A DNA stretch of 64,000 nucleotides, from contig MOYA01000001.1 of the NCBI GenBank assembly GCA_001899315.1, positions 2,558,529 through 2,622,528 on the forward strand, in the 5' to 3' direction. The DNA is from Candidatus Obscuribacter phosphatis. Lineage in GTDB: Bacteria > Cyanobacteriota > Vampirovibrionia > Obscuribacterales > Obscuribacteraceae. The notes beneath the pieces are model-generated. The model saw only the letters and a program-made list of their open reading frames with translations, was not told where the DNA came from and searched no databases. Positions 9,276-30,507 of the stretch are shown here, piece by piece. A program made the translations under genes and the position numbers. Positions within the stretch are counted from its first letter, which is position 1, and each line of letters begins with the position of its first letter.

Positions 9276-11465
9276 ATGCTCGAAGTAAAGAAGATCGAAT
9301 TGCAAGATGAGAAAAACATCGACGATTCCAAAACGCGCAGCAGCGGTAGCACCACCCTCGACGACATTGAGCAATTTGAGTCGGATCTCTGGCAGGCCGC
9401 AGACAACCTTCGAGCCAACTCGAAACTAACATCAAGCGACTATTTTATGCCGGTGTTGGGCGTGATTTTCCTGCGCCACGCTACCAATCGGTTCAACGTC
9501 GCGCATCGCCAGATCGAGGCTGACCAAGCGAACGGCAGGATGCCAAAACGCAAAGTGTTGCCCGCGGACTACATTGCGCGTCGGGCACTTTACCTTCCGG
9601 AAGATGCCCAGTATGACTGGATCATGCAGCAAGCATCTATAGGCGGTGCTGATCTTCCTAAACTCATCACTAGCGCGATGACAGCGATTGAAGAGTCTTT
9701 TGAACCTCTCGACGGCGTCCTACCGAAGGATTACGGAATTTTCGAAACCAAAGTTCTCGAAGACCTAATGCGCTTGTTCAACAGCGAGCTCATCAAAAAT
9801 GCCTCCGGTGACGTGTTCGGCCGCATTTATGAATATTTCCTCGCTAAGTTCTCTATTCAAAAGGCTCATGACAACGGTGAGTTCTTTACGCCTTCCTCGA
9901 TCGTCCAAACAATCGTGAATGTTATTGAACCGGATCATGGCACCATCCTCGATCCCGCTTGCGGCTCTGGTGGCATGTTCGTCCAATCAAGTCACTTCAT
10001 TGAACACGAAGGCGGAGATACCGCAAAGAAGGTGGTTTTCTACGGGCAAGAAAAGAATCGGGACACTATACGCATCGCGAAAATGAATCTCGCGGTGCAC
10101 GGACTGGAAGGTAAAATCGCCGAGGCAATAACTTACTACGAGGACGAACACACTCTCGTTGGCAAATGTGATTTCGTCATGGCTAATCCACCGTTCAATG
10201 TGGACCTCGTCGATGCGAAACGGGTTGAAGGCGATCCCCGCCTCCCCTTTGGTCTGCCCGGAGTAAACAAGGACAAGAAAGTCAGTAACGGAAACTATCT
10301 GTGGATCTCATATTTCTGGAGCTATCTTAACAACAAGGGCCGTGCGGGATTTGTCATGTCGTCACAAGCATCAAGTGCCGGGCACGGCGAAAAAGACGTC
10401 CGTCAAAAAATAGTTGAGACCGGCGATGTAGATGTGATGATCTCGATCCGCTCCAATTTCTTCTACACGCGTTCGGTACCCTGCGAGCTATGGTTTTTCG
10501 ACCGTGGCAGACCTTCGGAGCGCAAGAACAAGGTGCTAATGCTTGACGCACGCAATGTGTACCGCAAAGTTACTCGAAAAATATTTGATTTTTCTCCAGA
10601 GCAAATGAAAAACTTGGCGGCGATCGTTTGGCTTTACCGCGGCCAGCAAAACCGGTTTCTCATGCTGGTGAAGGAATATCTCAGCTACGTTTGTGCTGAG
10701 AGCGCATTTATTCCCCGCGCGCTCGCTTCCTTCGATTCTACGCTCTTTGACTTGCTTGGCTCGTTTGATTTGCTGGCTAAGGCTCTAGCAAAGAATACCA
10801 ATATTGATACAGAACAAAAGAAGATTCTATCTGGGGCTGTCACACAACTACGAGAAACTTCCACACTCTATAAGGCTGACGCTCAGCGCCTCTTGTCGAA
10901 TTTGGCCGCCTATAGCGAGAAGTATGGCAGTGCCCCACTTCCAGACAACAAATCTCAGCATACTGCTCGAAGGACTTTTGATCCAATTACGGAGACGATC
11001 CGGGGTCTAATGAAGCAGGTGGATTTGCTCTACAAACTAACCGCTCGTGCTGCTGATCTTGGTTCCTTACTTGCTGCGGATGAATCGATCTCGGCCAGCT
11101 ATGATCGCCGAGGCACGCTTCGGTTGGTGAAGAAGTTAGAGGAAGAACGTAAGACTGCAGTCGAGCAATTAAAGCACGCGATTTACTTCCATCGACAGGT
11201 TGCGTGGCTACAAGATCGCTTCCCGGACGCGGTGCTCGCCGATGTACCCGGACTCGTAAAGCTCGTAGATCACAAAGATATAGAAAATGCCGAATGGAGT
11301 CTCGCCCCGGGACTCTATGTGGGTGTTGCTCCTCCGGAAGTGGACGAGGATTTCGATTTCGAGCAAACTCTTCGCGATATTCACACCGAAATGGTCGATC
11401 TCAACAAGGAAGCTGCAGAGTTAGCAGCTAAGATTCAGGAGAACTTTGAGGGGATGGGAATATGA
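9276..11465 (+). CDS. hsdM: Type I restriction-modification methyltransferase subunit
   Basis: This is an N6-adenine DNA methyltransferase subunit of a type I R-M system. An N-terminal HsdM helical domain (FESDLWQAADNLRANSKLTS, about 27-46) precedes the catalytic domain with the SAM-binding motif ILDPACGSGGMFVQS (about 225-240) and the catalytic NPPF motif (MANPPFN, about 305). At 729 aa it is longer than classic HsdM (~500-550 aa). The extra C-terminal ~250 residues are helical and rich in Glu/Lys, and probably contact HsdS. Its stop overlaps the hsdS start (ATGA at 11462), so translation is coupled. Confidence 0.95.
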   Translation: MLEVKKIELQDEKNIDDSKTRSSGSTTLDDIEQFESDLWQAADNLRANSKLTSSDYFMPVLGVIFLRHATNRFNVAHRQIEADQANGRMPKRKVLPADYIARRALYLPEDAQYDWIMQQASIGGADLPKLITSAMTAIEESFEPLDGVLPKDYGIFETKVLEDLMRLFNSELIKNASGDVFGRIYEYFLAKFSIQKAHDNGEFFTPSSIVQTIVNVIEPDHGTILDPACGSGGMFVQSSHFIEHEGGDTAKKVVFYGQEKNRDTIRIAKMNLAVHGLEGKIAEAITYYEDEHTLVGKCDFVMANPPFNVDLVDAKRVEGDPRLPFGLPGVNKDKKVSNGNYLWISYFWSYLNNKGRAGFVMSSQASSAGHGEKDVRQKIVETGDVDVMISIRSNFFYTRSVPCELWFFDRGRPSERKNKVLMLDARNVYRKVTRKIFDFSPEQMKNLAAIVWLYRGQQNRFLMLVKEYLSYVCAESAFIPRALASFDSTLFDLLGSFDLLAKALAKNTNIDTEQKKILSGAVTQLRETSTLYKADAQRLLSNLAAYSEKYGSAPLPDNKSQHTARRTFDPITETIRGLMKQVDLLYKLTARAADLGSLLAADESISASYDRRGTLRLVKKLEEERKTAVEQLKHAIYFHRQVAWLQDRFPDAVLADVPGLVKLVDHKDIENAEWSLAPGLYVGVAPPEVDEDFDFEQTLRDIHTEMVDLNKEAAELAAKIQENFEGMGI

Positions 11466-12655
11466 AGTGGACCACGAAGTCCCTTGCGGAAGTGGCGGAC
11501 TTCTGTTTGGGAAAGATGTTGGACGACAAAAAGAACCGAGGAGAACCTCTTCCTTACCTGGCCAATGTCAATGTGCGTTGGGGTGAATTTCATCTCGAAA
11601 ATCTTCGAGAGATGCGGTTTGAGCATGACGAAATGGATCGCTACGGGCTGAAGTACGGCGACATCGTAATGTGTGAGGGGGGCGAACCGGGACGATGCGC
11701 AATATGGAAAGAGCCAGTGCCAGGAATGATGATCCAGAAAGCTCTTCATCGCATTCGCCCGCATGATTGCATTGATCATCGCTTCTTGTATTACACATTC
11801 TTGCATAAAGGAAAGACTGGTGAATTTGCTCCCTTATTTACAGGCGCGACTATCAAGCACCTTCCGCGTCAGCAGCTGGCCAAGCTTGAGATCGACTTCC
11901 CGCAGCTAGAAGTTCAGCGTCGCATTGCCGATTTCCTTTCCGCCTACGACAATCTGATTGAGAACAATCGGCGTCGAATGGCCTTGTTGGAAGATGCTTC
12001 GAGGCAATTGTATAAAGAGTGGTTTGTTCGGTTGCGCTTTCCCGGCCACGAACACACAAGTATAGTCCACGGTGTACCGGAGGCATGGGATCGAGTTCCT
12101 ACTCCGGATGCGATTTACGTCAATCCACCGACGCGATTATCAGATGAAGACGAGCATTGGTCCGTGGAGATGGCCGACCTGGATACAGACAGTATGGTTA
12201 TTCAACAGGCGACGCGGCGCGAAGGACGATCTGGAAGTAAGTTTCGCAACGGAGACACACTTTTTGCCCGCATAACACCATGCCTCGAAAATGGAAAGAC
12301 TGGGTTCGTCAACTTCATGGAAGATGGGGAAGTAGCTCGTGGCTCCACAGAATTTATCGTTCTTCGGTCTAAGCGCCTAACGCCCGAGTTTGTATATTGC
12401 CTTGCTCGCACCTACGAATTCCGCGAAAACGCAATCAGGAGTATGGTGGGTTCTTCTGGTCGGCAGCGTGTCCAGGAGAGCTGCTTCGACAAGTTCTTGG
12501 TCCTTGTCCCGCCAAGCACCTTGCTGGGCGTCTTTACCGAATGTGTAGAGCCTATGTTCCAGCAGATTAGAGTGCTTCATAGCATCAACCACAAACTCAA
12601 GACTGCCCGTGACCTGCTTCTGCCGCGATTGATGGGTGGGGAAATCGCTGTGTGA
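11462..12655 (+). CDS. hsdS: Type I restriction-modification specificity subunit
   Basis: The 397-aa HsdS recognises the bipartite target sequence. Two target-recognition domains are visible (about 1-150 and 200-345). Each is followed by a conserved helical spacer: LEVQRRIADFLSAYDNLIEN then RRRMALLEDASRQLYKEWF in the middle, and HKLKTARDLLLPRLMGGEI at the end. The start overlaps the hsdM stop by four bases. The specificity cannot be predicted by eye. Confidence 0.93.
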   Translation: MKWTTKSLAEVADFCLGKMLDDKKNRGEPLPYLANVNVRWGEFHLENLREMRFEHDEMDRYGLKYGDIVMCEGGEPGRCAIWKEPVPGMMIQKALHRIRPHDCIDHRFLYYTFLHKGKTGEFAPLFTGATIKHLPRQQLAKLEIDFPQLEVQRRIADFLSAYDNLIENNRRRMALLEDASRQLYKEWFVRLRFPGHEHTSIVHGVPEAWDRVPTPDAIYVNPPTRLSDEDEHWSVEMADLDTDSMVIQQATRREGRSGSKFRNGDTLFARITPCLENGKTGFVNFMEDGEVARGSTEFIVLRSKRLTPEFVYCLARTYEFRENAIRSMVGSSGRQRVQESCFDKFLVLVPPSTLLGVFTECVEPMFQQIRVLHSINHKLKTARDLLLPRLMGGEIAV

Positions 12656-12671
12656 TGGAAATGACGACGGC

Positions 12672-15600
12672 ATGATCACGGACATTAATAGCGAAGACCG
12701 GCTCGTCCAGAAGACCTTTGCGGACCATCTGGAAAAGTCTCTTGGATGGGACAGCATTTACGCTTATAATTCAGAAACCTTCGGTCCTGCTGGAACACTG
12801 GGGCGAGCGTCGGAGCGGGACGTGGTTTTAGTTCGCGACCTGCGCGCTGCCGTCGCACGGTTGAACCCCGACCTACCAGAAACCGCACGGGAACAGGCGA
12901 TCACCAAGCTGACGACGCATGACATAGCACGATCGCTCATTCAACACAATCGCGAATTTTACGGTTTCATTCGCAATGGAGTACCTGTGGAATGGCGAGA
13001 CGCATCGGGTGAAACTCGCTATGAGCATGCGCAAGTAATCGATTTTCAAAATCGCCCGGGAAACAACCGATTCCTTGCGGTTCGCGAATTAAAGATTCAG
13101 GGACTTCGGGTTCCTCACTACAATCGGCGCGCTGACTTAGTTTGTTTCATCAATGGTCTGCCAATCGTGTTCATTGAATTAAAGGCAGTCTACAGAAACA
13201 TCCGCGCTGGGTTCGACGACAATCTCACGGACTACCTAAGCGAACATAGTATCAATCACGCATTTCATCACAACGCCTTCTTAGTGGTAAGCAATGGCGA
13301 TAAGGCTCGCTATGGTTCGATCACTAGCAAATGGGATCACTTCGTTGAATGGAAGCGAAACGCGGAAACTGACAAAGCGCGGGTGGATGCTGAAGCCTTG
13401 CTAGACGGCATGTTGAAGCAAGAGAGGTTGCTCGACCTTCTCGAAAACTTTATCCTCTTCGATGATAGCCGCGCTGGCGGCACCCGCAAAGTTGTAGCTC
13501 GCAATCACCAAGTGCTCGGCGTAAACAATGCGGTCGCCTCCGTCAAGCGGCAGGAGGCACTGAAACGGGAAATTCCCCCGGAAAAGCGCTTGTTTGAATA
13601 TACCGTACCGATGCCGGAACTTCCACGAGCCGAAACGCCAGCTGTTCGGGAGGCAATACTCAAGTCCGAGATGAACAAGAGGGAGGAGTTTCTGTCTTTG
13701 ATCAAACGCTCACATCCAGACTTAGGGCGGTTGGGCGTGTTCTGGCATACGCAGGGCAGTGGAAAATCGTACTCAATGGCGTTCTTTGCCGAAAAGGTGC
13801 GCCGCGTTATCCCAGGCAATTTTACTTTCCTGGTCATGACTGATCGCGAGGATTTGGACGATCAGATCTGGCGCACTTTCATAGGTTGTGGTGTCACCGA
13901 TGAGAAGACTCCGCGCGCTGCCTCCGGTGAGAAACTCAAGGAACACCTGCACGGCAATCATCGCTTTATCTTCAGCCTGATCCACAAATTCAATAAGCCA
14001 GTAACGGAGCCTTACAGCACTCGTGACGATATCATCGTCGTTTCTGACGAGGCTCATCGCACTCAGGCGGGCAAGTTCGCCCGTAACATGCGGCTCGCAC
14101 TGCCGAACGCCTCGTTCATCGGATTTACTGGCACGCCATTGTTGAAGCATGACCAATTCACGAAACGTATCTTCGGAACTTACATTTCTAGATACGACTT
14201 CAAACGCTCCGAGGAAGATCGATCCACCGTCAAACTGATTTACGATAACCGTGGGGAGAAGCTCGGAATCGCGCGTCTCGATCTGAATGATCGGATCGCA
14301 GAAGCAATCGAGAAGGCGGAGCTAAATCCCGATCAACAGTCGTTGCTGGAGAAATTGCTTGGCAAAGACTATGAGGTTATTACTGCCGACGACCGGCTCG
14401 ACAAGCTCGCTGATGATTTCGTCGAACACTGCTCAACGAGGTGGCAGACTGGTAAGTCGATGTTTGTTTGCATAGACAAAATTACTTGCGGTCGCATGTT
14501 CACTCGCATCCAGCCCCGTTGGGAGGCTAAGCTCGCGGACTTGAAAGCGCTGATCACGATAAAGGAAGCCGAACTCAAGATCGCTACTGATTCGGATGTA
14601 CAGGAACGCCTCGGAAATGAGATCGAGTCGCTGCGCGGCCAGGCGCAGTGGATGGAAAGCACCATCATCCAAATCATCATCAGCGAGGCGCAAAACGAGG
14701 TGCGTGACTTCGCGAAATGGAAAGTCGATATTATTCCGCATCGGACGATCATGAAGACCGGATTCCATACCCCGGATGGCAGGCGGGTGGGAGTCGACGA
14801 TGCCTTTAAGGACCCGAAGCATCCATTCCGTATTGCAATCGTTTGCGCCATGTGGCTGACGGGCTTTGATGTGGAATGTCTTGCCACTTTGTACATAGAC
14901 AAGCCGATGAAGGCACATAATCTGATGCAGGCCATTGCTCGTGCTAACCGCGTTTTTCCGGGCAAAGATTGCGGCGTGATAGCGGATTACAACGGCATGC
15001 TCAAAAGTCTGCAAAAGGCGCTTGCACAATACGCGCTTGGGGATGATGACGCTGGCGGCGATGACGAAATTGTAGCCCCCATCGAGGTGCTCGTTGCCGC
15101 ACTTCTCCAGGCGATTGAGGAAAGCGAGAAACATCTTCTCGGACTTGGGTTTGATGCACTCCGGCTGCGAGGTGCAACTGGATTCACACGGATCGAAGCT
15201 TTGCGGGATGCCGTCGACGCTTTATACACCTCGGACGAAGCGAAACGCCGATTCGAAATCATGGCCCGTCAGGTCTTCATTCGTTTCAAGGCTTTGTTGA
15301 TGGAGCCTAGCGCATTCACTTACGCGGAGCGCCACGATAACATCGAGGCGATCTACAAGAAGCTTGAGGAAAAACGCGACACTGCCGACGTGACGGAAGT
15401 GCTAAAGCAACTGCACCGGATCGTTAACGAAGCTATACGTGCGGCAGCTCCTGGAGAGGATCGTGCGCAATCTTTGACTGTAGATCTCAGTCAGATTGAT
15501 TTCGAAAAGCTGCGCGAAGAATTCGCCAGCAAGGTGCGCCGCAAACATGCTGCTGTTCAAGACATTCGCGATGTCGTCGAGAAGAAGTTGGCCGATATGC

Positions 15601-16070
15601 TTGCACGCAATCCCCTGCGAATGGACTACTACAAGAAGTATCAGGAGATCATCGCTGATTACAATCGCGAAAAGGATCGCTCCACTGTCGAGCAAACATT
15701 TGCGCAGCTCGTCGCCTTAGCTGCGACACTAGATGAGGAGCAAAAGCGTGCAGCCAAAGAGGGATTGAGCGACGACGAATTGGCCCTCTTCGATCTTCTC
15801 TTTCGTGAGAGCATCACCAAGACGGATCGCGAACGCCTCAAACAAGCTAGCAAGAGCCTGCTGGATTCGCTCCGAACACTGCTTAAGCCGATGCCAACTT
15901 GGACGAAGAATAGCGCCACCCAAGCACAAGTTCGTGTGTTCATTCTGGACAGCCTCTATCAGAACCTGCCTCAGCCGCCATTCACCGATAACGACATAGA
16001 GCAGGCGACCGAGAACGTCTACAACTTCATCTGGGCAAAAAGCTTGGACGCGGATGCGACGTGGGTTTGA
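12672..16070 (+). CDS. hsdR: Type I restriction endonuclease/translocase subunit
   Basis: HsdR cleaves DNA after ATP-driven translocation. The N-terminal nuclease region contains RRADLVCFINGLPIVFIELK (about 155-175), matching the D...ExK catalytic pattern. The SF2 translocase follows: Walker A FWHTQGSGKSYSM (GSGKS about 362-366), VVSDEAHRTQ (DEAH box) and GFTGTPL. Motor 2 contains WLTGFDVECLATLYIDKPM and QAIARANRVF. The C-terminal half is helical. I use ATG 12672 (MITDINSED), 16 bases after hsdS, since the longer reading from 12636 lies inside hsdS. About 1132 aa, within the normal range of long HsdR proteins. Confidence 0.95.
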   Translation: MITDINSEDRLVQKTFADHLEKSLGWDSIYAYNSETFGPAGTLGRASERDVVLVRDLRAAVARLNPDLPETAREQAITKLTTHDIARSLIQHNREFYGFIRNGVPVEWRDASGETRYEHAQVIDFQNRPGNNRFLAVRELKIQGLRVPHYNRRADLVCFINGLPIVFIELKAVYRNIRAGFDDNLTDYLSEHSINHAFHHNAFLVVSNGDKARYGSITSKWDHFVEWKRNAETDKARVDAEALLDGMLKQERLLDLLENFILFDDSRAGGTRKVVARNHQVLGVNNAVASVKRQEALKREIPPEKRLFEYTVPMPELPRAETPAVREAILKSEMNKREEFLSLIKRSHPDLGRLGVFWHTQGSGKSYSMAFFAEKVRRVIPGNFTFLVMTDREDLDDQIWRTFIGCGVTDEKTPRAASGEKLKEHLHGNHRFIFSLIHKFNKPVTEPYSTRDDIIVVSDEAHRTQAGKFARNMRLALPNASFIGFTGTPLLKHDQFTKRIFGTYISRYDFKRSEEDRSTVKLIYDNRGEKLGIARLDLNDRIAEAIEKAELNPDQQSLLEKLLGKDYEVITADDRLDKLADDFVEHCSTRWQTGKSMFVCIDKITCGRMFTRIQPRWEAKLADLKALITIKEAELKIATDSDVQERLGNEIESLRGQAQWMESTIIQIIISEAQNEVRDFAKWKVDIIPHRTIMKTGFHTPDGRRVGVDDAFKDPKHPFRIAIVCAMWLTGFDVECLATLYIDKPMKAHNLMQAIARANRVFPGKDCGVIADYNGMLKSLQKALAQYALGDDDAGGDDEIVAPIEVLVAALLQAIEESEKHLLGLGFDALRLRGATGFTRIEALRDAVDALYTSDEAKRRFEIMARQVFIRFKALLMEPSAFTYAERHDNIEAIYKKLEEKRDTADVTEVLKQLHRIVNEAIRAAAPGEDRAQSLTVDLSQIDFEKLREEFASKVRRKHAAVQDIRDVVEKKLADMLARNPLRMDYYKKYQEIIADYNREKDRSTVEQTFAQLVALAATLDEEQKRAAKEGLSDDELALFDLLFRESITKTDRERLKQASKSLLDSLRTLLKPMPTWTKNSATQAQVRVFILDSLYQNLPQPPFTDNDIEQATENVYNFIWAKSLDADATWV

Positions 16071-16157: not shown

Positions 16158-16664
16158 TTACTCAGGCCGAAAAGCCGCTTCACCAGGTCGAGCATGAATC
16201 CACAGTTCTAATGGCAAGTGTCCGGCATTGAGCCCCAATATAAATTGAGCCTTTTCCTCGGCCTCTGTGCCATACACCAAGTAAATACATCGTTTGTATC
16301 CGAAGCCCAAGAATCGCTCGAATGTCTGCAAATCCTTGATGATGCCTGCTCTTCTTGCGGTGCAGGGCTTAATTTCAATGATTGCAAAATTTCGATGAGT
16401 TCCGGGCTCATGAACCAAGAGGTCAGGCTGAAGACCGCCTTCAGGAAAGTATGGATGGCCTTGCTTGTCAATTTCACCGTTCAGCGCATACGGTGTCTCG
16501 ATCTTATCCCACTCTACTCTAAGCTGGTGATATAGCTCGTAACAGTAGACGCGCTCTCGGTAGATAGTACGCGCGCGGCCATTCTCGGTTACGACAGGAA
16601 GCAAGAAGAATTTCCCGGGAATTGCTTGGGTCGCAGTTTGAAGTAATTCTTCGAATTCTTGCAC
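16158..16664 (-). CDS. Small PD-(D/E)XK nuclease-like protein
   Basis: This 168-aa protein has the pattern of a PD-(D/E)XK fold: GGLQPDLLVHEPG (the PD half-site, about 78-90) and FAIIEIKPCTA (the ExK half-site, about 93-104), then helices and an IYLVYGTEAEE strand. The fold is common in restriction and defence nucleases. It lies 16 bases downstream of the large ATPase gene on the same strand and is convergent to hsdR, so it probably belongs with the ATPase. Whether it is an active nuclease is inference. Confidence 0.65.
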   Translation of the reverse strand: MQEFEELLQTATQAIPGKFFLLPVVTENGRARTIYRERVYCYELYHQLRVEWDKIETPYALNGEIDKQGHPYFPEGGLQPDLLVHEPGTHRNFAIIEIKPCTARRAGIIKDLQTFERFLGFGYKRCIYLVYGTEAEEKAQFILGLNAGHLPLELWIHARPGEAAFRPE

Positions 16665-16680
16665 GCTCTATAGCTCCGGC

Positions 16681-19278
16681 TTAACTGACAGGGCACTTGG
16701 ACAAGAACTCCTCATACTTCTTCAGATCCGCATCTGCCTCGGCTACAGTCGCGCAACCACGATTAACAGCTGAACTTTCGTCATGGCAGCGAGCAGAAGT
16801 AGAGGTCATGCCCTCGTTTACCAACTTGAGTTTTTCTTCCGTGACGTTGACGTTCTTCAAACGCTGCGTCTCTATGCCATATCTGAATCTCTCTACGACA
16901 CCACCAAAGAGTCTTTCCTCAATGGCTCTCTCCCATGCCTCACGCAGCAGCTCATACCACGACTTCATATCGCGCTCAAGCCTATCGGGATCAGATCCAG
17001 TCCTTTCCAACTTTTCCAAACGTTGAAGGTCATTCTTTAGATAACCCTTGCGTTCCTTGCAGGTTTGCGCTATCCAAGGCAAGTCTTTGCTCGCAATGCC
17101 ACTGGTTTTGCCAACCTTCCGCACACTTATTGCGGTGGACTGTGCGTCCAATTTTTTGACAGCGCTTTGTAAATCGAGCAGAAAAACGATGTCGTGCGTA
17201 AAGACAATGACTTGTCTGTTTTTTGATTCTTCGACCAAGCGTTCAGCGACGTACTTCCTTCTTAAGTGATCCAATGAAGAGACTGGATCATCCAGAATGA
17301 TTGGACCGTTGTTCCGAGACGAGCCGACTTCTGCCAAGAAAAACGCCAGGGCGAGCGCACGCTGTTCGCCTTGGCTCAAAATCTCTGACAATGCCGCCTG
17401 ATCCACGCTCTTTAATGCGATATGGCATTTAGTCTTTCCCTTCTCTCCCCTGCTGCCGACCTTGATCGGGATGTCGTTGCAGTTCAATGCTTTCAACTCA
17501 TGTTCCAGACACTTGTTCAATTCGGCTGTCACTGCTTTCTCGACAAAATCTGAGATTTTTGTTGTCATACTTGTAGTCGACAGCGCACGCACTGATGCTT
17601 CCATGACGCTGATTTCTTTGTGTTTCGATATAGCGGCCAACACATCCCCTATTCGCTTTGCCAGAAGCTGTCGCGCTTTGAATTCAGCAACCTGTTTTTC
17701 GAGTTGCTCCTTGCGTCCAGGTTGCAGTAATAGCTCCTTTTCAGCAACAAACGCATTTAGACCTTCCAGCCACTTTTCAACCTTTGGCAAGGGACTCGTA
17801 GTCATGGCCGCGACTGACTTTGAGGAATCCCCACACAACGCTTCCAAATCATCGCGCCGTTTCTTCCACTCTGCGCAAAACGTCTCAATGATCTTCCAGA
17901 CGTCGTCGGCATCTTCTTTCAAGTAAACACAAATTGAATGCGTTTCGACTGCTGTAATGCTAGCTCCGGTAACTTCACCTTTCGCCTTTTCCACTGCTGA
18001 CTGCGCATCTCGCAAATGTGATTCAGTCTTATCTGAAACGAATTCCTCGAATCGCTTCAGTCGACGACTTGCCTCGTCGCTAATTTCCTGATGACAGAAG
18101 GGACAACGTTCGTGCTTTTCACTGTCGGGAGGAAACGTAGACTCTGGGTAAGCTTCCTGGCAAAAGTATTCGCGGGCAGCCAGCCAAAGCGTCTTCCAAG
18201 AATCGCTACCCACACCTGCAACTAATTCCGAGCCGAAATGTTTACCTCGAGCCAGTTCATACGCTTCCTGAGCCATCTTGAGTTTTTGCAACAGCTGATT
18301 GATTTGTTGCGCCTTTTCGTCGCTAACCTTAGCCAATGCCAGTTTGACTTTCGAAATAAACTCAGCGCACTCTGTGATCCGCCGTTTGGTTTGAGCAATC
18401 GACTTCGTTGGATCTGCTTGCTTCAGCTCAATAAGCTCTTTCTCAAGCTTGACAAAATTTTCGTTTTCCTCTTCCGAGAGCACCGAAAGCTTAGTGAATT
18501 CCTCTGGTTTGCTCTGGGCCGATAAGTCCCGCAGCTTTTGCTTAATAGAAGTATCCTCAACAAACTCAGCAAAATTCGGGAGCTGTGATTTAAGTGTCTT
18601 TGCCCTTTCTTGCAAAACCGCCTTTAGGCGATCTTGATTGACCGCCAAGCGCTGTAGAATTACCAGGTCATGCGGTACATAAGCCACATCATTTTCCGTG
18701 GTCAGATACAGTGAGCCGCACCTGGAGTCAAAGATGCTAATAGTACGAAGCTTTGGTTCTGGTGGCGTGTTCACGGTGCGCGTGATTGTTTCAGAGGCGC
18801 CACCATATGCGATATCAATCTTCGCAATGCCCGTAGTTTGTTGCCCATTCTGACTTTCATAAATGTTTGGAAGGATCTTTACCTTCTCGTCAACGGTCCT
18901 GCATGACTGCTTTAAGACGCGCGCATAGCTGGATTTACCTGCGGCATTATTGCCAAAGACAATTGTTAAGCCAGTCTCTGCAAACTCAAGCGCTTGGCCC
19001 TTTTGAACGGCACTTACGTTTTCCAATTCGTAGAGTCTGAGAATGCTGGGCGCCTCTTGCTGGTCATCCTTTACACCCAGAAACTGGTCTTTCGAAATCG
19101 GCTCCGGCGTCCGCGCTCCATCTATTTTCAGACCGCCCACTGCCAAGAGCATGTCTATAGCTTCATTCTGGTGCTTCTCGTCCAACGCTGGTGTATGTAG
19201 CAACTGCCTTACTAAATCCAACTGCCAGTTCTTGAGCCCATCCAGCCAGCTCCATACTTCAAGCCTTAACTCGCTCAC
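16681..19278 (-). CDS. Zinc-hook ABC-type ATPase, RloC/PrrC-like anticodon nuclease candidate
   Basis: The 865-aa protein has an SMC/Rad50-like plan. Walker A is GNNAAGKSS (109-117). A first coiled coil leads to a zinc hook CPFC at about 392-395, then a returning coiled coil. The ABC signature LSQGEQRALALAFFLAEV and Walker B/D-loop IILDDPVSSLDH follow, then a switch histidine VIVFTHD. RloC and PrrC anticodon nucleases share this DDPxSSxD-type head, RloC adds a zinc hook, and both carry a C-terminal R-x3-E...H nuclease triad. Here RYGIE (R about 798, E about 802) is followed by a histidine about 29 residues later (RCHDE), close to the PrrC spacing. Linkage to a type I R-M operon also fits. The nuclease assignment rests on motif pattern only. 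Confidence 0.7.
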   Translation of the reverse strand: MSELRLEVWSWLDGLKNWQLDLVRQLLHTPALDEKHQNEAIDMLLAVGGLKIDGARTPEPISKDQFLGVKDDQQEAPSILRLYELENVSAVQKGQALEFAETGLTIVFGNNAAGKSSYARVLKQSCRTVDEKVKILPNIYESQNGQQTTGIAKIDIAYGGASETITRTVNTPPEPKLRTISIFDSRCGSLYLTTENDVAYVPHDLVILQRLAVNQDRLKAVLQERAKTLKSQLPNFAEFVEDTSIKQKLRDLSAQSKPEEFTKLSVLSEEENENFVKLEKELIELKQADPTKSIAQTKRRITECAEFISKVKLALAKVSDEKAQQINQLLQKLKMAQEAYELARGKHFGSELVAGVGSDSWKTLWLAAREYFCQEAYPESTFPPDSEKHERCPFCHQEISDEASRRLKRFEEFVSDKTESHLRDAQSAVEKAKGEVTGASITAVETHSICVYLKEDADDVWKIIETFCAEWKKRRDDLEALCGDSSKSVAAMTTSPLPKVEKWLEGLNAFVAEKELLLQPGRKEQLEKQVAEFKARQLLAKRIGDVLAAISKHKEISVMEASVRALSTTSMTTKISDFVEKAVTAELNKCLEHELKALNCNDIPIKVGSRGEKGKTKCHIALKSVDQAALSEILSQGEQRALALAFFLAEVGSSRNNGPIILDDPVSSLDHLRRKYVAERLVEESKNRQVIVFTHDIVFLLDLQSAVKKLDAQSTAISVRKVGKTSGIASKDLPWIAQTCKERKGYLKNDLQRLEKLERTGSDPDRLERDMKSWYELLREAWERAIEERLFGGVVERFRYGIETQRLKNVNVTEEKLKLVNEGMTSTSARCHDESSAVNRGCATVAEADADLKKYEEFLSKCPVS

Positions 19279-19658
19279 TGTTCCTCCTCAGCCACCACTT
19301 CGCGCCCATAACTCCTGGGCAGCGTGTGACAATCATGCGGAGCGTTAGTTTATCACGGACGTCATTGCATATCTTCAGCATATCCAGAGCGATGCACGCA
19401 TGCAGCTGCAAGATATCGAGATTTGATCGCGGTTTATGGCTGCACTCGATGCCAGTCATTTCCTAATACGATTGGTTTTGATTCTTTGGTCACCGCCGTT
19501 CGTGCTTTTGACGGCGAGAACATTGACACGACTTTCCGCCGCTTCCAATGGCAACCCTAACGGGCGCTTCGCGTCCATTGGGCGTCGTAAAGCCGCATGT
19601 CGGGCTGACGCTCGTGTCTTTTGTGACGCACTTAACGCACATACGGAGGTGCCAAATT
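19279..19658. other. Divergent intergenic region
   Basis: This 380-base region separates the leftward ATPase gene from the rightward ssb gene and must hold both promoters. A short inverted repeat, GCCGT...ACGGC, lies near 19496-19516. I see no convincing gene. ACGGAGGT (19643-19650) at the right end is the ssb ribosome binding site. Confidence 0.6.
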
Positions 19659-20060
19659 ATGAACGATTCAATCACTATCGTTGGACATGTCGGCAAAGAT
19701 CCCTTAAGCAAGTCCTTCGGTCATAACAAAGTCGTCAAATTCTCGGTTGCAGTGAAAGAATATTCTTCCAACACGGAAGAAGAAAAAACAATGTGGATCG
19801 ACGTTGACGCCTGGAACGGACTAGGTGACCGCGTCGTGAAGACTGTCACAAAAGGCAGGGAAGTGGTGGTTAATGGCAGGCTCGCGATGTCCACATATTC
19901 CAAGGACATTGAAGGCACTTCTGTACAGATAACCAAGCCTGTCATCAAGCTCACGAGCTTTCACTTGTGTGGTCCGAAGCCAGCGGCTAAAGACGAGACG
20001 CAGACGGAAGATTCACAACCGCAAGCGTCCAGGAAAAAACTGGCGGCAGTAAAAGCATAG
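19659..20060 (+). CDS. ssb: Single-stranded DNA-binding protein
   Basis: The 133-aa product has a single OB-fold of the SSB family: ITIVGHVGKDPLSKSFGHNK, KVVKFSVAVKEYS, MWIDVDAWNGLGDRVVKTV, KGREVVVNGRLAMSTY. It has a short, charged C-terminal tail. The acidic DDDIPF tip typical of housekeeping SSB is absent (it ends KKLAAVKA), as in many plasmid- or phage-borne SSBs. GGAGGT 9 bases upstream fixes the start at 19659. It heads the mobilisation region. Confidence 0.9.
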   Translation: MNDSITIVGHVGKDPLSKSFGHNKVVKFSVAVKEYSSNTEEEKTMWIDVDAWNGLGDRVVKTVTKGREVVVNGRLAMSTYSKDIEGTSVQITKPVIKLTSFHLCGPKPAAKDETQTEDSQPQASRKKLAAVKA

Positions 20061-20066
20061 TTAGCA

Positions 20067-20099
20067 GGGCAGGAGCAAACGCTCCTGCCCTTTCCTTTT
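20067..20099 (+). terminator. Rho-independent terminator after ssb
   Basis: GGGCAGGAGC and GCTCCTGCCC form a perfect 10-bp stem with an AAAC loop (20067-20090), followed by TTTCCTTTT. It starts 7 bases after the ssb stop codon. Confidence 0.9.
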
Positions 20100-20240
20100 G
20101 TCTCGTCGAGAATTGTTTTTAGTATCGAACGAATTTTCCCACCGCCTCATTAACTGACTTCAACCCGTTTTTTAGAGCATCTTGCGACACTGCATCACGC
20201 GTGGTATCACACGCTCTTTGCCCCGCACTAACTCTTTACG

Positions 20241-20789
20241 CTATCTGCGCTCCCTTTCACTCCTCGTTGTTTCCAACCATTGCCGAGAATACAGCCATCG
20301 AGTTCGTGGAGTGTAGTCGCGGTAGATTCTGCGGATCACGTCGAAATTCTCGTCATAGTTGTGAGCAAAATATCGTTCAAGGTCCTTGTGAAATTTTTCC
20401 TTTGCTCGTCTTATGGCACTTTGTTCTTGAACGCGCTGCGCATACTCAGAGATTGACATGCCGATTACTTCCGATTCCTCATCGCATTTCTCTTCTGCCT
20501 TTCTACGCCGCTCTCTGGCGATGACATTCTCAGGGTGTTTGTATACCGCCCAATACATGCAGCTTCGTTTCCTGGTTGTGTTTGTTTGCCAGTGGTGGTA
20601 GTCGATGAGTTGCTCATCCTTCATTCTGTGCAACAGGTCCTTTAGAAACGCGGCTCTTACGCTGGCTTTTCCGACGACATAATTCAATTCTGACTGCTTT
20701 AATCTCGTCGGCTTGCCATCGACTTTTTGTTTCAGGGCCCTAAGAAGTTTTTGCCTGCTCCGCTTCTCATTGGGTTCTTTGACTGTCAT
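20241..20789 (-). CDS. Plasmid-type protein, possible winged-helix DNA binder
   Basis: Function not recognised. I start the 182-aa product at ATG 20789 (MTVKEPNEKR) because AAAGGA lies 8 bases upstream; a longer reading adds 22 residues. It is very basic. The segment LNYVVGKASVRAAFLKDLLHRM followed by EQLIDYHHWQTNTTRKRSCM resembles a winged-helix with a hairpin wing, as in replication-control or relaxosome proteins. The C terminus is highly charged and probably helical. Position among ssb, radC and mobilisation genes supports an element-borne role. Confidence 0.5.
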   Translation of the reverse strand: MTVKEPNEKRSRQKLLRALKQKVDGKPTRLKQSELNYVVGKASVRAAFLKDLLHRMKDEQLIDYHHWQTNTTRKRSCMYWAVYKHPENVIARERRRKAEEKCDEESEVIGMSISEYAQRVQEQSAIRRAKEKFHKDLERYFAHNYDENFDVIRRIYRDYTPRTRWLYSRQWLETTRSERERR

Positions 20790-20929
20790 TTTGATCATCC
20801 TTTCTGAAAAAACACTTTGCCAAAAGGTTTTACAGCAAAAAACCGACTGCGACAAAACTCGAAGATTTACAAGCCGGGCTGCTTGCTTCCTCCCATGCCC
20901 GGCACATAGAGCCTAACCCGCGCCACCCA

Positions 20930-20980
20930 GTGTCAATGCCCAAGCCATTCGGTCCTTCCTGCGGTCGGAGGCATTGACAC
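20930..20980. repeat. 11-bp perfect inverted repeat upstream of radC
   Basis: GTGTCAATGCC (20930-20940) and GGCATTGACAC (20970-20980) are perfect inverted copies 29 bases apart, in the 270-base spacer between two divergent genes. They could be a protein-binding site or an extruded hairpin controlling both. Confidence 0.75.
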
Positions 20981-21059
20981 CAGGGCCCGTGGCTGCGGGT
21001 TTACCGGCATGTGCTGCATGGGATGCGCTGCGCAGCCCTAACACATGGAGGAAACGAGC

Positions 21060-21527
21060 ATGAATAGCCGGACACTGAAGAAGCATCTTAAATACATCGT
21101 GCCTGAAATGCGCTTAGCGCTCATAAAGGAGCCAGGCGGGAAGCCCCTACCAATAGGATGTCCTGAAGATTTGGAAAAGTTTGTTGCACCGCTCAAGATG
21201 TACTCGGAAGAACATTTCGTTGCGTTCCACCTTGACGCAAAGAACGCGGTAACCGGGTATCACGTCGTTAGCCATGGTACCGTCAGCGCGTCGCTGGTTC
21301 ATCCTAGAGAAGTTTTCAAAGCTGCCCTCCTTGCTAATTCGCACGCTCTTATAGTGGCGCATAACCATCCGGCGGGCTCGCTCACGCCCAGCAGCGAAGA
21401 TATCGAAGTGACCGAAACGCTCATAAAGGCTGGTGATTTGATGGGTGTCAGGGTGATAGATCACATCATTGTCAGCTCCAACGGTCTATGCAGCCTCCGA
21501 GAAACGCGCCCGCATTTGTGGCCTTAA
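21060..21527 (+). CDS. RadC-family JAMM-domain protein
   Basis: The 155-aa protein carries the RadC/JAB (MPN) metal-binding motif HNHPAGSLTPSSEDIEVTE (about 99-117). The H-x-H and downstream S..D are the zinc ligands of JAMM proteins. The preceding HGTVSASLVHPREVFKAALL segment and the following GVRVIDHIIVS are typical of plasmid- and phage-borne RadC relatives. It lacks the HhH part of chromosomal RadC. GGAGG 9 bases before ATG 21060 selects this start over ATG 21045. The biochemical role of this family is unsettled. Confidence 0.9.
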   Translation: MNSRTLKKHLKYIVPEMRLALIKEPGGKPLPIGCPEDLEKFVAPLKMYSEEHFVAFHLDAKNAVTGYHVVSHGTVSASLVHPREVFKAALLANSHALIVAHNHPAGSLTPSSEDIEVTETLIKAGDLMGVRVIDHIIVSSNGLCSLRETRPHLWP

Positions 21528-21553
21528 AGATCGCGCAAAACTTGGTCGACGGA

Positions 21554-21586
21554 AAGAAGCGCTTACAAGCGCTTCTTTTCTTTTCC
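21554..21586 (+). terminator. Rho-independent terminator after radC
   Basis: AAGAAGCGC...GCGCTTCTT forms a 9-bp stem with a TTACAA loop, running straight into TTTTCTTTTCC. It lies 27 bases after the stop codon. Confidence 0.85.
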
Positions 21587-21744
21587 TTGGTTTCCCGGTC
21601 CTTATATATAGTCAGGGCACCTATCCTTTACCCTATTGTCAAGTTATACAATTTCCCATTTCCAACGAACCGGGAACAACGATATACTGTTATCGTCGAC
21701 TATCAATGGTAGCGATTGCCGCAGATGCGCAACCTACCATTAAT

Positions 21745-21763
21745 AAGATCAGTGACTGATCTT
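21745..21763. promoter_or_regulatory. 19-bp palindrome, candidate operator
   Basis: AAGATCAGT-G-ACTGATCTT is a perfect 9-bp palindrome around one base. The inner ACTGATC half-site recurs in the second palindrome at 21923-21941, which suggests one regulator binds both. A terminator role is less likely because no long T tract follows. Confidence 0.6.
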
Positions 21764-21879
21764 CTTCCCCCTTCATTTTTCGCTGTTACTTCCATTACAG
21801 CGTGTCAAACCAAATTCTTCTTTTAGCTCTGAGTTTCGTGAACCGGCGCCCGGAAGGCAGCCGATTAGAAACCAGACCA

Positions 21880-21955
21880 AACCGAAAAGGAAAATCACTC
21901 AAGAGCGATTAATCAATACTCCTGATCAGCAGTACTGATCACTCGATTTTCGGTT
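21880..21955. promoter_or_regulatory. Nested inverted repeats upstream of excisionase-like gene
   Basis: An outer pair, AACCGAAAA (21880-21888) and TTTTCGGTT (21947-21955), encloses TGATCAG-CAGTA-CTGATCA (21923-21941). The inner element shares ACTGATC with the palindrome at 21745. The region lies 100 bases upstream of the small HTH gene, in a 524-base gap without a gene (21528-22051). It may be the control or recombination site of the element. Confidence 0.55.
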
Positions 21956-22051
21956 GTTAGCTGCAATCCGCGGCCATCAACTTTTCCAAGTTCAGCACCG
22001 TCAGCGCGTCACAAAAATGCTGGCGAGTATCAAAAGCAATAGGAAAAATAC

Positions 22052-22267
22052 ATGACACAAGAAACTCCCGCTGGAGCTGCTTATGGGCGCTCCGAGCTTC
22101 TCAGTCGTAGAGAAGCTGCTGCTTATCTCGGAGTCGCAGAACAGACTCTGGCAATATGGAAATGTACGAAAAGACAAGAACTTCCATACGTAAAAATCGG
22201 AAAACTGGTTAAATACCGTAAGTCCGATCTCGACGAATTCATAGCCAAGAATCTTCGAAGCGCATAA
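22052..22267 (+). CDS. Excisionase-like helix-turn-helix protein
   Basis: The 71-aa product matches the MerR-type/excisionase HTH family: SRREAAAYLGVAEQTLAIWK is the helix-turn-helix (about 19-38), followed by the beta wing LPYVKIGKLVKYRKSDLDEFI. Such proteins act as recombination directionality factors or small regulators on integrative elements. The palindromes at 21745 and 21923 are candidate targets. No integrase is found nearby, so the pairing cannot be confirmed. Confidence 0.85.
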   Translation: MTQETPAGAAYGRSELLSRREAAAYLGVAEQTLAIWKCTKRQELPYVKIGKLVKYRKSDLDEFIAKNLRSA

Positions 22268-22539
22268 GAAACCAAAGACCCAAGAACAGTTACGAATCCC
22301 TTCCGGGGGACGAACCCTGAAAACAGGGCTATGACATATTCGATGGCTGGCTTCTTGGGCTAACCCTGCTACGGTAAATCTAGGAAACATAGACGCACCA
22401 CTGCCGGTGTTACCCAGTCTTCGGACCTGTCTTGCCCAAATATACAAAACAACATTTAGTCACTTGGTGAGTTCGCGAGATGACTTGGATGGCTTCGCGC
22501 CCTCTTACTCAACACTCACCGGTGACAGGAGGTGAAACA
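22268..22539 (+). other. Possibly structured non-coding stretch
   Basis: No convincing gene before the GTG at 22540. CCCAAGAA near 22281 and TTCTTGGG near 22353 are perfect inverted copies that could close a ~80-base structure. A short hairpin, CCCTG-AAAA-CAGGG, lies between them. The fold could be an RNA leader or an antisense-type regulator. It ends with the AGGAGGTGAAACA ribosome binding site of the next gene. Confidence 0.4.
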
Positions 22540-22812
22540 GTGGCACCGACCTCATCGCCGTTTGGCGGAATTGAGCAGGTTCTTTTACTTCTGTTCGTGT
22601 TGATGGTTCTTGTCGGTATAGCCGGAGGTAATTCGAGCATGGTTCTGAATCCAGTGTTCGACATTGTCGGGCAAATGGTAAAGGTTCTTCTAAGCCTTCT
22701 CAGCACGCTTCTAATAACTCTGTTCAGAGTCTTGGGTAATGTTCTCGTGTCTGGAATAAAACTCCTCGCAGAGACGCTCACAAATGGCTCTGGAAGACAG
22801 AACAAGAGGTAG
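22540..22812 (+). CDS. Small integral membrane protein of the mobilisation region
   Basis: Starting at GTG 22540, 8 bases after a strong AGGAGG, the product is about 90 aa. It has two long hydrophobic segments: about 11-30 (VLLLLFVLMVLVGIAGG) and about 40-70 (IVGQMVKVLLSLLSTLLITL). A short basic tail follows. The earlier in-frame ATG at 22480 has no ribosome binding site. It precedes the relaxase and a coupling protein that lacks its own membrane helices, so a membrane-anchor role in DNA transfer is plausible but unproven. Confidence 0.6.
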   Translation: MAPTSSPFGGIEQVLLLLFVLMVLVGIAGGNSSMVLNPVFDIVGQMVKVLLSLLSTLLITLFRVLGNVLVSGIKLLAETLTNGSGRQNKR

Positions 22813-23114
22813 AAATCACAAGAACAGTCCGCAACAACATCACGAACGGAAGAAACCATCAGGAAACTACAGTTACCATATACGGTGTCGCCGCGAGGAG
22901 GTGGCACCGACGCGCAACAAGCATCGAGCGAAGCGAGCCATTACCGGGAGGCTTGACCGTACGGTAATGCAAGATACAGAGCGCACGGTCGCGCTCGCAA
23001 GATGCCCACTACAAGAGGGCTGAATGGGACGGTACGTTCACAGAGAATTTCGTCTCTGACATGGTCGTAACCACTATCCCAAGTATCACCTGCATTGAAT
23101 AGGCCGGTACAGCG
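22813..23114. other. Intergenic region, candidate origin of transfer
   Basis: This 300-base gap lies directly upstream of the mobilisation accessory gene and relaxase, where oriT usually sits. It contains the inverted repeat CATTACCG...CGGTAATG (around 22939-22970), the palindrome ACCGTACGGT inside it, and a GAGCGAAGCGAG motif just before. No known nic consensus is recognised, so the call is positional. Confidence 0.35.
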
Positions 23115-23556
23115 ATGAGAATGAAAAAACAATATCAAGATATGAGCGTCGGGCTGAACGAACGCGACCGCGCTCGATTAATACAGCTAGCAAGAGAAAA
23201 GGGGGGTAACCAAAACAGAATTCGCCCGAGAGGCAATCCGCTGGTACATCACAAACTACGAGGAGATCAAAGGACAAACAAGAGACGGAGAAATCGCAGC
23301 AGCGATGCGATACGCAACAGAACAAATAGTAAAAGCAATCAATGGAGGAGTAGACAGAATATGCAAAATGCTTGCCAGACAGGGACGAGCGATAGGGACG
23401 TTATATGAGCTCAGCTGGATGTCCCTACCGGACGATGAAGACGCGCGCAAAGCGTTTGAAGCCGCGGCAACCAAAGCCAAACAAAAAATGGCACGGCATG
23501 TCGAGAACGATGAAAAAGAATTCGCAGAACGGCTGAAGAAGGTTGTGAATAGCTAA
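23115..23556 (+). pseudogene. MobC-like ribbon-helix-helix protein, frameshifted at G6
   Basis: Two overlapping frames together encode one protein. Frame one gives MRMKKQYQDMSVGLNERDRA then RLIQLAREKG. Dropping one G from the six-G run at 23201-23206 continues as GVTKTEFAREAIRWYITNYE and on to the stop at 23556. Joined, LNERDRARLIQLAREKG-VTKTEF is the ribbon-helix-helix pattern of relaxosome accessory proteins (MobC-like), about 147 aa, followed by a helical C-terminal half. The second frame has no good start before 23305. The cause may be a mutation, a sequencing error in the homopolymer, or programmed frameshifting. The stop abuts the relaxase start. Confidence 0.75.
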
Positions 23557-25110: not shown

Positions 25111-25114
25111 AAAC

Positions 25115-29380: not shown

Positions 29381-30448
29381 ATGAAAGTCTCAACTGCTAA
29401 CCCACATACTCAAACGAGCTCTTTACCGAAGATAGTGAGCTTGTTTTGTGGTGCCGGCGGACTTGATCTCGGATTTGTTGAGGAAGGATTTCAGATTCCA
29501 TTAGCTGTTGACATATCTGCAGCAGCCATAGAGACTCACTTGGATAATTTTCCATCCTCTGCAGCCATTGCAGCCGACCTAAATGCGCTCGGTCCTACAG
29601 GAGTACTAGAACAAGTAAGAAAATACATTCCAAAACAGTCAAGCATTGGCGTTATTGGTGGCCCCCCGTGTCAAGGCTTCTCGCGCGCAAACACTCGTGC
29701 AACAGCTGACGATCCAAGAAACAAGCTCCCGAAACTGTATTTGAAAATCATAAAAGCACTGCAAAGTGAGTATTCTGTTGAATTTGTTGTTCTCGAGAAC
29801 GTTCTCGGTATTAGGGACTGTAAACACGCTAAAACTTTCTTCTCCGTAAAGGATGGGCTTAAGCGGCTAGGATTTCGTGTCGATGACAACGAACTGTGCG
29901 CCCTAGATTTTGGGGTTCCGCAAATGCGCAGACGAGTTGTTCTGATAGGAATGCGTAAAGATCGAGATTATCCGACCGTTGTCGTTCGCAGACAAAAAGG
30001 CAAACGCACGGTGCGAGAGGCTATTTACGGTCTCTGTGCACCTGCATTCTTCGCTCCAAAGCTTGCGAAGGATGATATACCTGAACATCCAAACCATTGG
30101 ACGATGAAGCCAAAGTCAGCAAGATTTAGCAATCCTGATGCGATGACTAAAAACACACGAAGCTTCAAGCGCCTCACGTGGGACGAACCAAGTCCAACTA
30201 TTGCGTTTGGCAACCGGGAGATCCATGTTCATCCGAACGGACATCGGCGATTAAGTATCTATGAGGCAATGCTTATTCAGGGATTTCCCGAGTACTTCCA
30301 ACTCAACGGAAATTTGTCACAGCAGGTTGAGCAAATTTCGAATGCTGTTCCACCGCCTTTAGCTCGCGGCATTGCCTCTGGAATTCGTCTCTCAATAGTA
30401 GCGCATACTGAGATCAAAATTGAGTCAGCCGTTTCCGAGCCCCTGTGA
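29381..30448 (+). CDS. DNA cytosine-C5 methyltransferase, DruM-like
   Basis: The 355-aa enzyme has the ordered C5-MTase motifs: motif I VSLFCGAGGLDLGF (about 19-32), motif IV GGPPCQGFSRAN with catalytic Cys97, motif VI VVLENVLG (about 140), motif VIII region QMRRRVVLIGM, and motif X NAVPPPLARGIA near the C terminus. Its gene converges with a nuclease-helicase operon that includes a DruE-like giant helicase. Type II Druantia systems are known to carry a cytosine methylase (DruM), so this enzyme may mark self DNA for that system. A solitary methylase is the alternative. Confidence 0.9.
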   Translation: MKVSTANPHTQTSSLPKIVSLFCGAGGLDLGFVEEGFQIPLAVDISAAAIETHLDNFPSSAAIAADLNALGPTGVLEQVRKYIPKQSSIGVIGGPPCQGFSRANTRATADDPRNKLPKLYLKIIKALQSEYSVEFVVLENVLGIRDCKHAKTFFSVKDGLKRLGFRVDDNELCALDFGVPQMRRRVVLIGMRKDRDYPTVVVRRQKGKRTVREAIYGLCAPAFFAPKLAKDDIPEHPNHWTMKPKSARFSNPDAMTKNTRSFKRLTWDEPSPTIAFGNREIHVHPNGHRRLSIYEAMLIQGFPEYFQLNGNLSQQVEQISNAVPPPLARGIASGIRLSIVAHTEIKIESAVSEPL

Positions 30449-30470: not shown

Positions 30471-30507
30471 CGACAACTAGAATTGCGTTCCTCAATACTA
30501 GTTGTCG
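30471..30507. terminator. Convergent hairpin between methylase and nuclease genes
   Basis: CGACAACTAG (30471-30480) and CTAGTTGTCG (30498-30507) form a perfect 10-bp stem around 17 bases. It overlaps the stop codon of the leftward gene and follows the stop of the rightward one by 22 bases. T tracts are poor, so terminator function is only likely by position. Confidence 0.5.

What the first reader, a model, noticed from the sequence alone, without database searches (positions are those of the whole stretch)
16158..19278. Candidate RloC-like anticodon nuclease with a PD-(D/E)XK partner
The 865-aa ATPase has a zinc hook CPFC at its centre and a PrrC/RloC-like head with DDPVSSLDH. A C-terminal R-x3-E (RYGIE) precedes a His about 29 residues later. 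Its neighbour downstream, 16 bases away, has PD...ExK half-sites. A two-gene RloC plus nuclease-like pair is not a textbook arrangement.
Basis: partly seen in the sequence, partly recalled or inferred. Interest (0 to 1): 0.7.

Follow-up and report, generated by a model that had tools for sequence, protein, structure and literature searches.

The report
RloC-type tRNA-cutter beside orphan DNA nuclease
A bacterial anti-phage gene that probably shuts down protein synthesis by cutting tRNA sits in one likely operon with a small DNA-cutting enzyme; each belongs to, or near, a known kind of defence gene, and the two are only rarely found together.

Summary
In detail: an 865-aa Rad50-like ATPase with a CPFC zinc hook, a 16-base gap, then a 168-aa protein with PD...ExK half-sites, on one strand, beside a complete type I restriction-modification locus. 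The ATPase is best read as an RloC-type ABC-HEPN ribonuclease of a subfamily with about 80 extra N-terminal residues. Only the His was right. The C-terminal domain is a predicted helical bundle, nearest to HEPN toxins but weakly; its sequence alone is not detectably similar to canonical proteins. The neighbour has a PD-(D/E)XK fold (pLDDT 93.7; best matches BglII/BstYI/BamHI) and belongs to a widespread family that moves alone. The pair is not a conserved system: an RloC-type gene lies near 1 of 80 other nuclease loci (Cupriavidus, opposite order), and 3 of 79 nuclease-bearing genomes carry one, against 16 of 658 in two background samples. Probable reading: two defence genes stacked in a mobile defence island. 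A DNA-break relay from nuclease to RloC is possible but unproven.

The parts
16681..19278 (-). rloC-type gene, 865 aa, GTG start with AGGAGG 4 bases upstream
19042..19278 (-). N-terminal extension, about residues 1-79, relative to canonical AAA_13 proteins, whose P-loop lies at residue 30-39 (here 109)
18928..18954 (-). Walker A GNNAAGKSS, residues 109-117
   Evidence: K115 in 27 of 27
18094..18105 (-). zinc hook C392-P-F-C395
   Evidence: both Cys in 27 of 27
17365..17379 (-). ABC signature LSQGE, residues 634-638
   Evidence: S635 and E638 in 27 of 27
17266..17298 (-). Walker B / D-loop ILDDPVSSLDH, residues 661-671
   Evidence: D663, D664 in 27 of 27; D670 in 24 of 27
17194..17196 (-). switch His H695
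   Evidence: 27 of 27
16930..16944 (-). R779-x3-E783, probable ACNase/HEPN residues
   Evidence: R and E in 27 of 27
16870..16884 (-).
   Evidence: R in 11 of 27, E in 4 of 27
16783..16785 (-). H832, probable catalytic His
   Evidence: 27 of 27; 48-51 residues between Glu and His
16158..16664 (-). PD-(D/E)XK nuclease-fold protein, 168 aa, GTG start, 16 bases after rloC
16422..16427 (-). P80-D81 half-site
   Evidence: invariant in 56 of 56
16368..16376 (-). E97-x-K99 half-site
   Evidence: 90% or more of 56
9276..11465 (+). type I R-M, HsdM
   Evidence: N6_Mtase 2.8e-70
11462..12655 (+). type I R-M, HsdS
   Evidence: Methylase_S 1.3e-15; PADLOC Specificity_I 9.5e-75
12636..16070 (+). type I R-M, HsdR, convergent with the pair
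   Evidence: HSDR_N 7e-37, SWI2_SNF2 2.9e-63; TIGR00348 1e-131

Best explanation
The ATPase is an RloC-type abortive-infection ribonuclease: a Rad50-like ABC head with a zinc-hook insert, carrying a C-terminal HEPN-like RNase domain with the residues R779, E783 and H832. By analogy with studied RloC proteins it stays silent until the head meets linear DNA ends, then uses ATP to switch on the RNase, which cuts tRNA anticodons and stops translation. In its island it would be a back-stop for the adjacent type I restriction system: ends made by HsdR, by the phage, or possibly by the neighbouring nuclease arm it. The 168-aa neighbour is an independent PD-(D/E)XK defence nuclease that travels between genomic contexts as a single gene and here landed in the same operon. 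Shown here: gene layout, conserved motifs, predicted nuclease fold, genomic distribution. Inferred: RNase activity, tRNA target, DNA-end trigger, DNA cutting by the neighbour, transcription as one operon.
For: ABC and hook motifs and R779/E783/H832 conserved in 27 of 27. Spacing (x48; 48-51 across the 27) and length (865 aa) fit the published RloC rule R-x3-E-x36-52-H, 658-897 aa (passages of PMC2610378). R-M linkage: window hsdMSR; hsd homologues beside the ATPase in 3 of 46 loci searched, L031 (between hsdS and hsdR), L127 and L142. The PrrC/RloC class is described as often found in R-M operons and with RhuM-like genes (passages of PMC3710099), as L031 appears to be. DNA-end triggering and tRNA cleavage are published for Geobacillus and Acinetobacter RloC (passages of PMC3874168). 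Best Foldseek matches of the C-terminal model are mostly HEPN toxins, weakly. Neighbour: PD and ExK conserved in 56 aligned members, restriction-endonuclease-like fold, varied contexts. No co-inheritance.
Against: Profile comparison of the C-terminal domain alone with 11 canonical AAA_13 proteins is not significant (E 0.051 over 18 columns, probability 1%). Foldseek E-values for the C-terminal model are 0.32 or worse, and VIA Z of HEPN rows (7.0-7.6) is below unrelated bundles (up to 9.3) and below the level that counts for helical bundles. No named, assayed RloC sequence was available to align. A different RNA target, or an inactive domain, is not excluded. The two families recur once in another tight operon (L037), which argues somewhat for a functional link.
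Confidence: 0.7

Rival explanations
1. A true two-gene relay: the PD-(D/E)XK protein nicks or cuts foreign DNA, and the ends it leaves are the signal that the RloC head senses, so DNA cutting and tRNA cutting are coupled in one operon. (Not exclusive with the RloC identity above.)
For: 16-base gap with a ribosome-binding site, same strand. A second tight operon in Cupriavidus necator holds the same two families, downstream of genes read by eye as methylase, McrB and McrC and of a Vsr gene. [quoted passage not shown]
Against: 1 of 80 loci outside the window, in the opposite order; the closest ATPase relatives lack the nuclease and the closest nuclease relatives lack the ATPase; 3 of 79 nuclease genomes have the ATPase against 16 of 658 in background samples.
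Confidence: 0.18
2. The ATPase is an ABC-HEPN ribonuclease of the RloC architecture whose target is not the tRNA anticodon (for instance mRNA or rRNA).
For: The C-terminal domain shares motif and position but no detectable sequence similarity with canonical proteins; HEPN domains cut various RNAs (passages).
Against: The motif and spacing match the published RloC rule.
Confidence: 0.2
3. The ATPase is a DNA-repair or SMC-like protein without RNase activity.
For: Rad50/RecF/SMC-like head.
Against: [quoted passage not shown] an invariant R/E/H motif lies in such a C-terminal domain here; R-M and mobile-island context.
Confidence: 0.08

Closest known systems
RloC anticodon nuclease (Geobacillus kaustophilus, Acinetobacter baylyi; passages of PMC2610378 and PMC3874168)
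   Same: ABC head split by a CxxC zinc-hook insert, C-terminal R-x3-E...H, length class, occasional R-M linkage, GTG start (also seen in 13 of 70 published RloC genes)
   Different: about 80 extra N-terminal residues; hook at C392 against C291 (Gka) and C314 (Aba); 48 residues between Glu and His against 40 in Gka; His not preceded by Ser; activity untested; Gka and Aba sequences themselves not aligned
PADLOC candidate PDC-S06
   Same: full-length match, 3.9e-222
   Different: a candidate label; other models of the same label match only in part
PrrC
   Same: R-M linkage and R-x3-E...H logic
   Different: PrrC is 341-416 aa without a zinc-hook insert
PD-lambda-3 component A (PADLOC model)
   Same: 37 of 56 neighbour-family members match at E 0.1 or better, best 3.4e-8; PD-lambda-3 is reported as an abortive-infection system with a PD-(D/E)XK part (passages)
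   Different: the window protein matches weakly (1.2e-4) over 58 residues only
BglII/BstYI/BamHI restriction endonuclease fold
   Same: VIA Z 9.2-10.0 over 126-145 residues
   Different: 9-15% identity; no methylase seen to pair with the family; specificity unknown

Membership tests
RloC | ABC-ATPase head motifs (Walker A, signature, Walker B/D-loop, switch His) | tested here: met
RloC | CxxC zinc hook within a split head domain | tested here: met
   C392/C395 in 27 of 27; the coiled coil itself was not modelled
RloC | C-terminal R-x3-E-x36-52-H | tested here: met
   R779-x3-E783-x48-H832; 27 of 27 with spacing 48-51; rule
RloC | length 658-897 aa | tested here: met
   865 aa; range
RloC | C-terminal domain homologous to canonical RloC/PrrC by sequence profile | tested here: inconclusive
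   alone: E 0.051 over 18 columns. Forced alignments: R-x3-E coincides and His is 4 columns off (whole length), or both motifs are one column off (C-terminus only)
RloC | HEPN fold of the C-terminal domain | tested here: inconclusive
   five of the six best Foldseek chains are HEPN-type (2hsb and 6m6u by their titles, 7bxo twice and 5yep by recall), E 0.32-0.45; VIA Z 7.0-7.6 for HEPN rows
RloC | tRNA anticodon cleavage with wobble excision, switched on by linear DNA | not testable with these tools
   -
PrrC | 341-416 aa, no zinc-hook insert | tested here: not met
   865 aa with hook
PD-(D/E)XK nuclease superfamily (neighbour) | PD...ExK residues conserved | tested here: met
   E37, E43, E64, P80, D81 invariant, E97 and K99 at 90% or more of 56
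PD-(D/E)XK nuclease superfamily (neighbour) | restriction-endonuclease-like core fold | tested here: met
   model pLDDT 93.7; Foldseek PaqCI 5.4e-4, the only match under 0.001; VIA Z 10.0 BglII
PD-lambda-3 | full-length match to component A and presence of any further component | tested here: inconclusive
   partial match only; further components not looked for
Type I R-M system (adjacent) | HsdM, HsdS and HsdR encoded together | tested here: met

The most novel reading that the evidence does not exclude
A DNA-break relay in one operon: a small PD-(D/E)XK nuclease makes ends in invading DNA, and the next-door RloC senses those ends through its Rad50-like head and answers by cutting tRNA. This would join direct DNA defence and suicide in two genes, with the type I system beside them as a further source of ends.
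Probability: 0.18. Interest if true: 0.7.

Novelty: new member of a known kind. Interest (0 to 1): 0.35.

Why it matters
If the relay were real it would suggest what supplies the DNA ends that arm RloC during infection.

Tried and rejected
PrrC: rejected by length and hook. A conserved two-gene system: rejected by distribution. Solved RloC/PrrC relatives: sequence searches of the PDB gave ABC/Rad50/RecF/AriA-type heads and no credible relative of the neighbour. Phage records: no relative of the ATPase at 1e-5. Plasmid records: the ATPase matches 1055 records, 164 of them over 80% of its length, the neighbour 4; the two neighbour contexts opened there show no RloC-type gene. A first genome scan with the single ATPase sequence found no relative. 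An E. coli plasmid AAA ATPase (L153) was translated but not classified, because the family scan failed, and was not used. HEPN was not confirmed by VIA, whose top rows are bundles such as vinculin tail, Z 9.3. Neighbour-family scans give tallies, not per-protein tables, so the share of neighbours that are defence genes was not computed. Promoter scan: none found against 2.8 expected by shuffling, which says nothing. Literature: searches; only listings, abstract starts and the passages cited were seen, and nothing seen there described an RloC/PD-(D/E)XK pair.

Rows dropped: of 26 profile hits in fetched loci, 20 of 750 aa or more joined the 27-row alignment; 5 fragments and one weak hit that looks like another ABC protein (L086) were left out. 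55 of the 80 nuclease loci, plus the window, entered A3. 64 neighbour proteins, a hand-picked part of the 90 listed, were scanned. 11 of the 12 AAA_13 loci were used (a fragment was left out). The 44 loci and the 46 contain some places twice (for instance L011/L026, L012/L027, L013/L031, L014/L032; L037/L137/L149). Background genomes count at E 1e-60 or better; there the tool scored only the best 2 or 3 candidates per genome, whereas all candidates were scored, so the background may be undercounted. The 16 of 658 include G099, itself the Cupriavidus genome with the pair; without the two centre genomes it is 15 of 656.

Full report
The ATPase gene runs 16681-19278 on the minus strand (865 aa, GTG) and the small gene 16158-16664 on the same strand (168 aa, GTG). 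The gap of 16 bases holds a GGAG 9 bases before the second GTG, and AGGAGG stands 4 bases before the first, so both starts are plausible and co-transcription likely, though not shown. The pair faces, tail to tail, a complete hsdM-hsdS-hsdR locus (9276-16070). G+C of the two genes (0.485 neighbour, 0.483 ATPase) is near that of the window (0.496).

The ATPase matches Pfam AAA_13 from residue 388 to 729 (6.2e-18) and the PADLOC candidate PDC-S06 over its whole length (3.9e-222). In an alignment of 27 proteins (the window, 6 first homologues and 20 further full-length ones) the Walker A Lys, both hook Cys, the signature Ser and Glu, the Walker B Asp pair and the switch His are invariant. The Glu-His spacing is 48-51. 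Davidov and Kaufmann describe RloC by R-x3-E-x36-52-H, a CxxC hook, 658-897 aa and rare R-M linkage, and report that R692, E696 and H737 of Geobacillus RloC are needed for activity (passages of PMC2610378). The window protein meets the sequence criteria.

Two results temper this. Canonical AAA_13 proteins from a class-wide search have the hook at residue 257-300 in 11 of 11 and the P-loop at residue 30-39 in the 9 where the pattern was found, so the window protein carries about 80 extra N-terminal residues. Profile alignment of the whole length in global mode gives probability 100 and E 4.8e-46. In that forced alignment the R-x3-E motifs of the two groups coincide but the His is 4 columns off; with the C-termini only, forced, both motifs are one column off; and without forcing, the C-terminal domain gives no significant similarity (E 0.051 over 18 columns, probability 1%). 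The AlphaFold2 model of residues 700-865 (pLDDT 84.4) is a helical bundle. Of its six best Foldseek chains five are HEPN-type (2hsb and 6m6u by title; 7bxo, twice, and 5yep by recall), all at E 0.32-0.45, with no match under 0.001. VIA places HEPN rows at Z 7.0-7.6, below unrelated bundles at up to 9.3. HEPN identity, which the literature assigns to RloC and PrrC (passages of PMC3710099), is thus likely but not proven here.

R-M linkage of this subfamily is real but uncommon. Among 46 loci searched (some places twice; flanks from almost none at contig ends to about 10 kb), hsd homologues lie beside the ATPase in 3: L031 (hsdM, a RhuM-like gene by eye, hsdS, ATPase, hsdR in this order), L127 and L142. 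With short flanks this is a lower bound.

The window neighbour has no Pfam or NCBIfam match at E 1 and no PHROG match at 0.01. A pattern scan of species genomes found 85 relatives, of which 80 were kept, across many bacterial groups and several archaea by record title. In 56 aligned members (window and 55 of the 80) E37, E43, E64, K67, P80 and D81 are invariant and E97 and K99 are at 90% or more. The model is confident (pLDDT 93.7); Foldseek's best match is the restriction enzyme PaqCI (5.4e-4) and VIA's are BglII, BstYI and BamHI (Z 9.2-10.0; best Z of 7-8 is common for models without a clear match). 37 of 56 members match the PADLOC model PD-Lambda-3_A, best 3.4e-8; PD-lambda-3 is reported as an abortive-infection system with a PD-(D/E)XK part (passages). 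Among 64 adjacent proteins scanned, single members match BrxL, a retron-type reverse transcriptase, MjaI endonuclease, GmrSD, Vsr and UvrD, two match SIR2, and others are ordinary genes such as GatB or fumarase. The family behaves as a gene that moves alone.

Is the pair a system? Within 8 kb (less at contig ends) an RloC-type ATPase was found at 1 of 80 nuclease loci: Cupriavidus necator UYPR2.512 (L037), where genes read by eye as a C5 methylase, McrB and McrC, then Vsr, the nuclease and the ATPase follow each other on one strand, nuclease first. In the window the ATPase comes first. Genome-wide, 3 of 79 genomes behind those loci carry the ATPase (one genome appears twice), against 11 of 369 and 5 of 289 in two classes sampled evenly, the 11 including the Cupriavidus genome itself and the background searches scoring fewer candidates per genome. 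The nuclease was found in 1 of 369 and 2 of 289, each count including the chosen centre. In 98 relatives of the window genome, 3 have the nuclease and 4 others have a clear ATPase (E 1.1e-35 or better), with no overlap; further weak ABC matches there are not counted. 43 of 44 ATPase-search loci in hand, some of them the same place twice, lack the nuclease; the exception is the Cupriavidus locus again. The pair is therefore rare and not co-inherited. Two independent tight operons in opposite order are compatible with island stacking or with a loose functional benefit.

Mechanism. Published work reports that RloC is switched on by linear DNA and by double-strand breaks, needs its ATPase, is restrained by its zinc hook and cuts tRNA; in Acinetobacter the R-M protein was not needed for this activation (passages of PMC2610378 and PMC3874168). 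By analogy the window protein is a last line of defence beside the type I enzyme. The nuclease next to it could feed it ends, which is the boldest reading not excluded, but distribution gives it little support.

Host.

Noticed in passing
window 30498-40006 (-): Druantia-like block: DruK-like PD-(D/E)XK protein, full-length DruE (E 0), DruL-like and DruF-like proteins.
   Followed up: partly
window 40281-41462 (-): Fic/DOC protein matching PADLOC SoFic at 7.9e-124.
   Followed up: no
window 45680-52486 (+): Probable Wadjet operon: DUF3375 protein (1.4e-145) and an SbcC/Rad50-type ATPase, with a gene between and one after them that were not scanned (the name JetABCD is recalled).
   Followed up: no
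window 19548-27223 (+): Mobile-element genes beside the pair: SSB, RadC, MobA/VirD2 relaxase, T4SS coupling protein, so the island is probably on a conjugative or mobilisable element.
   Followed up: partly
window 29381-30448 (+): C5 cytosine methylase (1.3e-49) next to the Druantia-like block.
   Followed up: no
G152:C1 34083-41795 (L144, L161): One genome carries the N-extended ATPase and a canonical AAA_13 protein about 3 kb apart on the same strand.
   Followed up: no
L031 2229-12256: RloC-type gene between hsdS and hsdR with a RhuM-like gene (by eye), the position that prrC has in EcoprrI (recalled).
   Followed up: partly
L024 1560-6140, L038: Nuclease-family gene a few kb from a gene that by eye looks like a SNIPE relative (C-terminal GIY-YIG-like stretch).
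   Followed up: no
L168 (G610:C89): ATPase homologue with one in-frame TAA, perhaps a pseudogene.
   Followed up: no
L004 5001-5537: RefSeq names a relative of the neighbour 'methionyl-tRNA formyltransferase-like protein', which the fold result does not support.
   Followed up: partly
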